A stretch of 64,000 nt of DNA, taken from Agreia sp. VKM Ac-1783. GTDB taxonomy: Bacteria; Actinomycetota; Actinomycetes; Actinomycetales; Microbacteriaceae. Of the stretch, positions 37,483 to 37,786 are shown piece after piece. How positions within the stretch are numbered: the stretch's first letter is position 1; each line of letters begins with the position of its first letter. A program made the translations under genes and the position numbers. The notes beneath the pieces were generated by a model. The model had not been told where the DNA came from. It did no database searches and saw only the letters and a program-made list of their open reading frames with translations. The stretch spans positions 1-64,000 of the forward strand of contig NZ_FXWI01000004.1 in the NCBI RefSeq assembly GCF_900177765.1, written 5' to 3'.

Positions 37483-37779
37483 ATGACAATCACCGAGAGC
37501 AGGACAACAATCCACGGTCGGCTACGTGCGGCGCGGCTGATGGCAGGACTTGAACAGGGCGACCTAGCCGACGCGCTGGGCGTGTCACGAGGATCGGTAA
37601 GCAACTACGAGACCGGGAAGTCGGAGCCTGTCGCGTCGGTGTTCGTCAACTGGGCACGCCTCACCGAGGTCAGTCTCGATTGGCTGGCCGGTGGCTTAAA
37701 CAAAAAAGCCCCCGACTCCGTAGAGTCGGGGGCTGATGGTGTTGTGCGCCCTAAGGGATTCGAACCCCTGGCCTTCTGA
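37483..37779 (+). CDS. XRE-family prophage repressor whose frame ends inside attR
   Basis: The 98-residue protein has a Cro/CI helix-turn-helix (LEQGDLADALGVSRGSVSNY, about 24-60). Its last 28 or so residues (from NKKAPDSVES) are encoded by the tRNA terminator and the tRNA-Arg antisense sequence of attR, stopping at TGA 37777. In the circular phage the same frame would continue across the core into 21614-21700, adding 28 residues (ending RAAIRGVSA). It therefore exists as a short prophage form and a long viral form. The ATG at 37483 seems leaderless; a frame from 37423 exists but lacks signals. Confidence 0.82.
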   Translation: MTITESRTTIHGRLRAARLMAGLEQGDLADALGVSRGSVSNYETGKSEPVASVFVNWARLTEVSLDWLAGGLNKKAPDSVESGADGVVRPKGFEPLAF

Positions 37780-37786
37780 TCCGTAG
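37703..37786 (-). repeat. Right att copy (attR) with tRNA-Arg terminator
   Basis: The 84 bp are identical to 15112-15195. The terminator (arm AGCCCCCGACTC, stem 37707-37734, U tract on the minus strand from 37707 leftwards) ends tRNA-Arg transcription and at the same time encodes part of the repressor on the + strand. Confidence 0.92.

What the first reader, a model, noticed from the sequence alone, without database searches (positions are those of the whole stretch)
37483..37786. Prophage repressor frame crosses attR: likely integration-dependent immunity switch
Seen in sequence: the XRE repressor frame runs into the tRNA-Arg att core and stops at TGA 37777. The attL core at 21578 is in the same frame at the matching offset (16,163 bp) and would extend it by 28 residues (codons 21614-21697) in the circular phage. 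Thus the prophage makes a 98-aa form and the virus a 126-aa form. Established knowledge: mycobacteriophages of the BPs/Charlie type place attP inside the repressor gene, integrate at tRNA genes, and only the shorter prophage form is stable because the viral tail carries a degradation tag. Here the viral tail is Ala-rich and ends RGVSA, which could act as such a tag. An independent case in a 16-kb prophage of Microbacteriaceae would be new to me.
Basis: partly seen in the sequence, partly recalled or inferred. Interest (0 to 1): 0.9.

Follow-up and report, generated by a model that had tools for sequence, protein, structure and literature searches.

The report
Phage repressor shortened by chromosomal integration
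A small dormant virus in an actinobacterium has its attachment site inside its own repressor gene, so that inserting into the host chromosome cuts a tail off the repressor; this is a known kind of switch into dormancy, found here with many relatives and with one feature not seen in the papers examined.

Summary
The repressor ORF (37483-37779, 98 aa) runs into the 39-bp core shared with 21577-21615 and stops at TGA, whose A is the first host base of tRNA-Arg. Joined to the left core it gives 126 aa. Congeners resolve it: three have the empty site, two carry an inner-type element alone at the tRNA. The host site reads TGA, the phage half TGT.

This is a member of the known integration-dependent immunity family (BPs type), not an independent invention. 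The integrase is 60% identical to that of Curtobacterium phage Barebow, whose attP has the same CTTCTGTTCTGTAG, and 45% to BPs relatives. Counting the window, 33 prophages with both att sites read show a host-stopped repressor; exceptions exist. 33 of 44 viral tails end in A or S. Degradation of the long form is inferred, not shown.

Possibly new: between its DNA-binding domain and the core, the repressor gene also encodes, on the other strand, a terminator-like hairpin beside the re-formed tRNA (32 of 42 sites by stem length).

The parts
37483..37779 (+). repressor gene, prophage form, 98 aa (HTH_3; PHROG 2328 transcriptional repressor)
37740..37778 (+). right attachment core (39 bp), inside the repressor ORF; overlaps the 3' end of tRNA-Arg
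37777..37779 (+). TGA stop; its A is the first base outside the core, host-derived
37744..37818 (-). intact tRNA-Arg (ACG), re-formed by integration
37707..37734 (-). terminator-like hairpin, followed by a T tract, just 3' of the tRNA, overprinted on the repressor linker codons; 37703-37741 is identical to 15112-15150
21577..21615 (+). left attachment core of the 16-kb phage (junction with the older element)
21614..21700 (+). [quoted passage not shown]
21895..22821 (+). tyrosine integrase, 308 aa
21577..37778 (.). 16-kb tailed-phage prophage (terminase, portal, major head protein, tail genes, replication initiation protein)
36523..37374 (-). replication initiation protein-like gene, divergent from the repressor
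15112..15195 (+). third core copy with native tRNA terminator: old chromosomal left end
15196..21576 (.). older element between the third copy and the phage (KAP NTPase gene 19015-21099); no integrase among its scanned ORFs; not part of the switch

Best explanation
The 16-kb element is a small temperate tailed phage with BPs-type integration-dependent immunity. In the circular phage the repressor gene reads through attP and codes for a 126-aa protein, followed by int. Integrase recombines the 39-bp core with the 3' part of tRNA-Arg; the repressor then runs into host tRNA sequence, where TGT becomes TGA, and a 98-aa protein is made while the tRNA is restored. The 28-residue viral tail most likely makes the long form unstable, so that lasting repression, and thus lysogeny, follows only from integration. 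Shown by sequence: the frames, both junctions, the origin of the stop, homology and recurrence. Inferred: proteolysis of the long form, repressor activity of the short form, operator binding.
For: Frames and fusion. Pre-integration sites in congeners show that TGA is host and TGT is phage. A sequenced phage of a host that I recall to be of the same family, Barebow, has an intact gene of 133 aa across attP with the same CTTCTGTTCTGTAG; four more named phages (Liefie, SallySpecial, Wizard, Bipper) and five viral contigs kept in the count (L101, L116, L118, L119, L132) also have the gene unbroken across a tRNA-like core, recognised by its T-arm motif. Microbacteriaceae: 26 integrase loci besides the window were examined; 18 had an att pair at a tRNA, and 14 of these show the host-stopped repressor with a longer viral form. 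Named genomes: 24 repressor loci from 40 genomes; in 18 both att sites could be read, and 18 of 18 have the longer viral form. Several tRNAs and frames are used (Arg in two antisense frames and on the sense strand, Lys in two frames, Met, Asn), with a host stop at or just after the core in these. Viral C-termini: 20 of 24 end in A/S against 25% of 628 ORFs; among the 14 rebuilt from prophages 12, against 7 of 28 tails in the other frames of the same sites; in the wider list 33 of 44.
Against: No measurement of stability or activity. The window tail ends GVSA, not LAA or AA. Eleven of 44 tails do not end in A/S, five of them ending in R. The window integrase ends ...SMGMRA, only weakly tag-like. 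G033 has the repressor frame shifted so that the prophage form would be longer (148 against 125 aa); G049, G008 and G295 have att pairs without it; 8 of 26 loci showed no att pair at a tRNA. The nearest ORF divergent from the repressor is replication-initiation-like, not cro-like as in BPs (no dedicated search).
Confidence: 0.85

Rival explanations
1. The two-form switch is real but the viral tail acts otherwise than by an ssrA-like tag, for example as a hydrophobic helix that misfolds the protein, blocks its oligomerisation or is read by another protease.
For: 15 of 44 tails hold an aromatic-hydrophobic motif against 3.9 on average in shuffles (motif chosen after seeing the tails, and the window tail lacks the tryptophan form of it); five tails end in R; the window tail is hydrophobic.
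Against: Most tails end in A/S; in BPs the change A135E near the C-terminus stabilises the long form (PMC4557955, passages).
Confidence: 0.25
2. The real excision unit is 22.6 kb, from 15112 to 37786; the copy at 21577 is a relic and the circle codes for the same 98-aa repressor.
For: The outer copies share 84 bp, more than the inner pair.
Against: Two congeners carry a relative of the inner element at the tRNA without the phage; the bases after the core at 21616 match phage Barebow, not the host; the integrase lies just right of 21577.
Confidence: 0.03
3. The open frame across the core is an accident of GC-rich sequence, and the repressor works the same with or without the tail.
For: A stretch of 28 open codons alone is not rare in such DNA (inference, not computed).
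Against: The same design in 32 other prophages with different tRNAs and frames, in unbroken form in viral sequences, and with biased C-termini.
Confidence: 0.04

Closest known systems
Mycobacteriophage BPs / cluster G integration-dependent immunity
   Same: attP in the repressor, 35-bp tRNA-Arg core, Cys codon turned into TGA by the first host base, int beside rep (PMC9262239 and PMC4557955, passages); integrase 45% identical to those of Liefie and similar phages (cluster G recalled, the Liefie record says Gclasvirinae); PHROG 2328 repressor
   Different: other host, 16 kb instead of about 41 kb, tail ends GVSA; Liefie lacks the hairpin before the core
Curtobacterium phage Barebow (PQ868957, 18.3 kb)
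   Same: small phage, integrase 60% identical over 85% of the query, repressor across attP with CTTCTGTTCTGTAG, hairpin before the core
   Different: annotated only as helix-turn-helix protein; ends RRAS; has an HTH gene divergent from the repressor
Gordonia cluster CW phages; SallySpecial (15.9 kb); Bifidobacterium prophages 689b-1 and Bb423phi2
   Same: small genomes with integration-dependent immunity (PMC5559632, PMC6109161, passages; SallySpecial itself, its cluster not checked)
   Different: other hosts; cluster CW uses tRNA-Lys and the Bifidobacterium ones tRNA-Met
Tandem prophages prophiT36-2a/b of Mycobacterium abscessus
   Same: two elements share a mixed attR/attL junction at one tRNA (PMC9934374, passages)
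   Different: here no repressor and no integrase were found in the older element's scanned ORFs

Membership tests
integration-dependent immunity (BPs type) | attP core lies inside the repressor ORF | tested here: met
   (attP rebuilt in silico)
integration-dependent immunity (BPs type) | attB overlaps a tRNA gene that is restored | tested here: met
integration-dependent immunity (BPs type) | host sequence at the junction introduces the stop; phage form is longer | tested here: met
   TGT to TGA, 126 to 98 aa
integration-dependent immunity (BPs type) | tyrosine integrase gene just downstream of the repressor in the phage, homologous to known ones | tested here: met
integration-dependent immunity (BPs type) | ssrA-like tag at the end of the viral repressor | tested here: inconclusive
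   ends GVSA; family bias to A/S, with exceptions
integration-dependent immunity (BPs type) | degradation tag on the integrase | tested here: inconclusive
   window integrase ends SMGMRA; some relatives end AAA
integration-dependent immunity (BPs type) | no recombination directionality factor and no arm-type sites | tested here: inconclusive
   no family named excisionase among 16 phage proteins scanned, but a small HTH protein of unknown role lies after int (22825-23067); remaining ORFs and arm sites not tested
integration-dependent immunity (BPs type) | short form stable and immune, long form unstable and inactive | not testable with these tools
   needs expression and protease assays

The most novel reading that the evidence does not exclude
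In this family the repressor gene is overprinted three ways: DNA-binding protein on one strand, integrase core plus tRNA 3' part, and, in the linker between the two, an intrinsic terminator on the other strand that ends transcription of the re-formed tRNA gene and shields the repressor from antisense read-through. The linker peptide (for example NKKAPDSVESGADG) would then be dictated by a DNA-level terminator, and in the window the phage's copy is letter for letter its host's own native terminator.
Probability: 0.6. Interest if true: 0.55.

Novelty: new member of a known kind. Interest (0 to 1): 0.45.

Why it matters
It places a well-studied lysogeny switch across Microbacteriaceae and other actinobacteria (loci from Brachybacterium, Curtobacterium, Agromyces, Brevibacterium, Jiangella, Nocardia and others) and suggests a rule that can be checked in any genome: the frame chosen through the tRNA is one in which the host supplies a stop just after the core. 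The overprinted terminator, if real, explains the odd linker sequences and adds a constraint on how such switches can evolve. It also gives a set of natural viral tails, some not ending in A/S, for testing what makes the long form unstable.

Tried and rejected
Rejected: pairing of the repressor with the third core at 15112 (congeners). Rejected: independent origin (homology). Not used as proof: ranking of hairpin energy against windows of the same element, in which only 9 of 24 sites fell in the lowest 5%; the T-tract test was redone because one search had cut the opposite side short, which lowered the count from 17 of 18 to 13 of 18. The shared-label test on the integrase tree was uninformative (3 changes, 500 of 500 shuffles as low). 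Repeat search at 37360-37560 gave no operator candidate. BPs itself (EU568876, NC_010762) is not in the collections, so Liefie stood in. The founding paper (Broussard 2013) was not seen; it is cited through PMC9262239.

Rows dropped: L103 (near copy of L101). Of the 24 named repressor loci, six were left out of the 18: L266 and L292 (contig ends at the core), L269, L306 and L293 (no core shared with the integrase locus) and L290 (exact repeat begins after the stop; checked by hand, TAG against phage TGG, so it would agree). L266 and L292 are in the 44 tails, G035 is not. Of 26 integrase loci fetched besides the window, 8 showed no att pair at a tRNA (G293, G281, G120, G029, G276, G069, G057, G051). 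Hairpins in the named set: 22 given, 18 tested (L286, L290, L292, L294 fell out for lack of a tRNA where the script looked), and L269 and L306 are among the 18.

Full report
WHAT IS THERE. The repressor ORF starts at ATG 37483, has an HTH_3 domain (residues 14-68) and matches PHROG 2328 'transcriptional repressor' over residues 7-97, that is, through the tRNA-derived part (E 6.8e-22). It stops at TGA 37777-37779. The exact core 37740-37778 equals 21577-21615 (39 bp) and both lie in the same repressor frame; the joined gene has 126 codons and a stop at 21698-21700. tRNA-Arg (ACG) 37744-37818 is intact. The integrase follows the severed tail at 21895-22821, so the phage order is repressor, attP, int. 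Between the att sites lie a terminase, portal, major head protein, tail genes and a replication initiation protein.

WHICH PARTNER. There are three cores (15112-15195, 21577-21615, 37703-37786). A search of the 8 genomes of the genus and an alignment of their sites give the history. G278, G077 and G238 have no insert: their left flank matches the window up to 15195 and their right flank starts at about 37703. In G192 and G299 the DNA that in the window lies left of 21577 is joined directly to the intact tRNA. G140 has the native left flank and another terminator; G300 is not informative. The phage therefore entered the junction of an older element and the tRNA. After the core, the pre-insertion sites read ATCCGTAG and the window's left site reads TTCTGTAG: TGA belongs to the host, TGT to the phage, and the exchange lies within the 39-bp core. 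The isolated phage Barebow has TTCTGTAG at the same place inside an unbroken repressor gene.

FAMILY. 299 genomes of the family were searched with the integrase (300 asked for, drawn evenly from a larger group). The 20 best elements besides the window and 6 of the next ones were fetched. Eighteen of these 26 have an att pair at a tRNA. Fourteen of the 18 have a repressor-like ORF that runs into the right core, is stopped by host sequence, and is longer when joined to the left core; G033 is frame-shifted, and G049, G008 and G295 lack it. A second set came from 40 genomes behind named integrase loci: of 24 repressor loci with E at or below 1e-12, 18 had both sites readable and all 18 have the longer viral form. 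With the window this makes 33 prophages. In tRNA-Arg three readings occur: antisense ...GFEPPTF with TGA, antisense ...RDSNPQPSDP with TAG (L264, L265, L268), and the sense strand with TAG (L286, and L290 by hand). In the sense-strand cases the intact tRNA lies on the integrase side and the repressor runs into the displaced host fragment. In tRNA-Lys two frames occur. Unbroken genes across a core are seen in Barebow, Liefie, SallySpecial, Wizard, Bipper and six viral contigs, L103 being a near copy of L101. The integrase tree puts the window in a 13-row clade (99/99) with 11 rows (window included) that show the switch, one unknown and G033; Wizard, Liefie and Bipper form another clade (100/100).

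TAILS. Of 24 viral forms, 16 end in A and 20 in A or S; the background is 16% and 25% of 628 ORFs. Among the 14 rebuilt from prophages 10 end in A and 12 in A/S, against 3 and 7 of 28 tails in the other two frames of the same sites. In a wider list of 44 tails 27 end in A, 6 in S, 5 in R and 6 otherwise. BPs gp33 is unstable because of a C-terminal tag and is stabilised by A135E (PMC4557955, abstract and passages). The step from these facts to degradation of the window's long form is inference.

OVERPRINTED TERMINATOR. Read on the tRNA strand, the 60 bases after the tRNA 3' end in the window fold at -30.1 kcal/mol, z -6.1, with a 12-bp stem followed by TTTTTGTTTA. These bases are codons of the repressor linker. 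A stem of at least 8 bp within 15 bases of the tRNA end was found in 18 of 24 sites and in 14 of 18 further ones, 32 of 42 in all; among these 32, more T follows the stem on the tRNA strand than on the other in 24, fewer in 1, equal in 7. In the further set at most 5 of 100 shuffles fold as well in 17 of 18; in the first set at most 10 of 200 do so in 19 of 26 (this set includes G033 and G049). Against: ranked against windows of the same element only 9 of 24 stand out, and Liefie, L101, L116, G127, G275, G058 and G227 miss the shuffle threshold; G127 is among the 18 by stem length alone. G049, without the switch, also has a hairpin there, so supplying a terminator may be general for elements in tRNA genes; the special point is that here it must be coding. 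In the window 39 bases are identical to the host's native terminator at 15112-15150, and the empty sites match at 93-96% over the aligned stretch with the tRNA. Literature: 'terminator', 'linker' and 'antisense' do not occur in PMC4557955 nor 'terminator' and 'hairpin' in PMC9262239; of the 9 papers in the listing (20 of 104 shown) that hold 'integration-dependent immunity', 8 show no 'terminator', and in PMC9476930 it means a tail protein. One search (12 of 21 listed) showed none that holds both 'intrinsic terminator' and 'immunity repressor'. Broussard 2013 was not available, so novelty is tentative.

VERDICT. A new member of a known kind, with strong comparative support for the two-form repressor, an unmeasured mechanism of instability, and a possibly new structural constraint. 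Among the papers listed (20 of 20; 20 of 53; 20 of 3,692; 12 of 18, 'Microbacteriaceae' 0 in each) I saw none whose title or abstract start describes this switch in Microbacteriaceae; the Curtobacterium prophage paper PMC9862828 holds neither 'attL' nor 'tRNA' (passages only).

Noticed in passing
window 15196-21576: An older element between two core copies, absent from three congeners and with relatives of its right end in two; it carries a KAP NTPase gene (PADLOC PifA 1.6e-48) and two ORFs weakly like the N-terminal part of DrmA, shows direct repeats GTTGCTGTCACGGTTGCTGTCA at 15290 and 21434, and no integrase among its scanned ORFs.
   Followed up: partly
   Followed up: partly
L286 with L184 (Microbacterium kyungheense), L290 with L193: The repressor runs into tRNA-Arg sequence along its sense strand and stops at TAG (phage side TGG), while the intact tRNA lies beside the integrase: the same logic in the opposite orientation.
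   Followed up: partly
viral tails of L257, L286, L288, L289, L291: Five tails, all from Microbacterium records, share an aromatic FW motif and end in R rather than A/S.
   Followed up: no
window 37367-37382: A TTATCCACA word (DnaA-box consensus, recalled) overlapping the palindrome TCCACAATGTGGA at the start of the divergent replication initiation gene (read by eye).
   Followed up: no
L139: A viral contig in which a repressor ORF ends inside a tRNA core just upstream of an integrase, perhaps a tandem junction.
   Followed up: no
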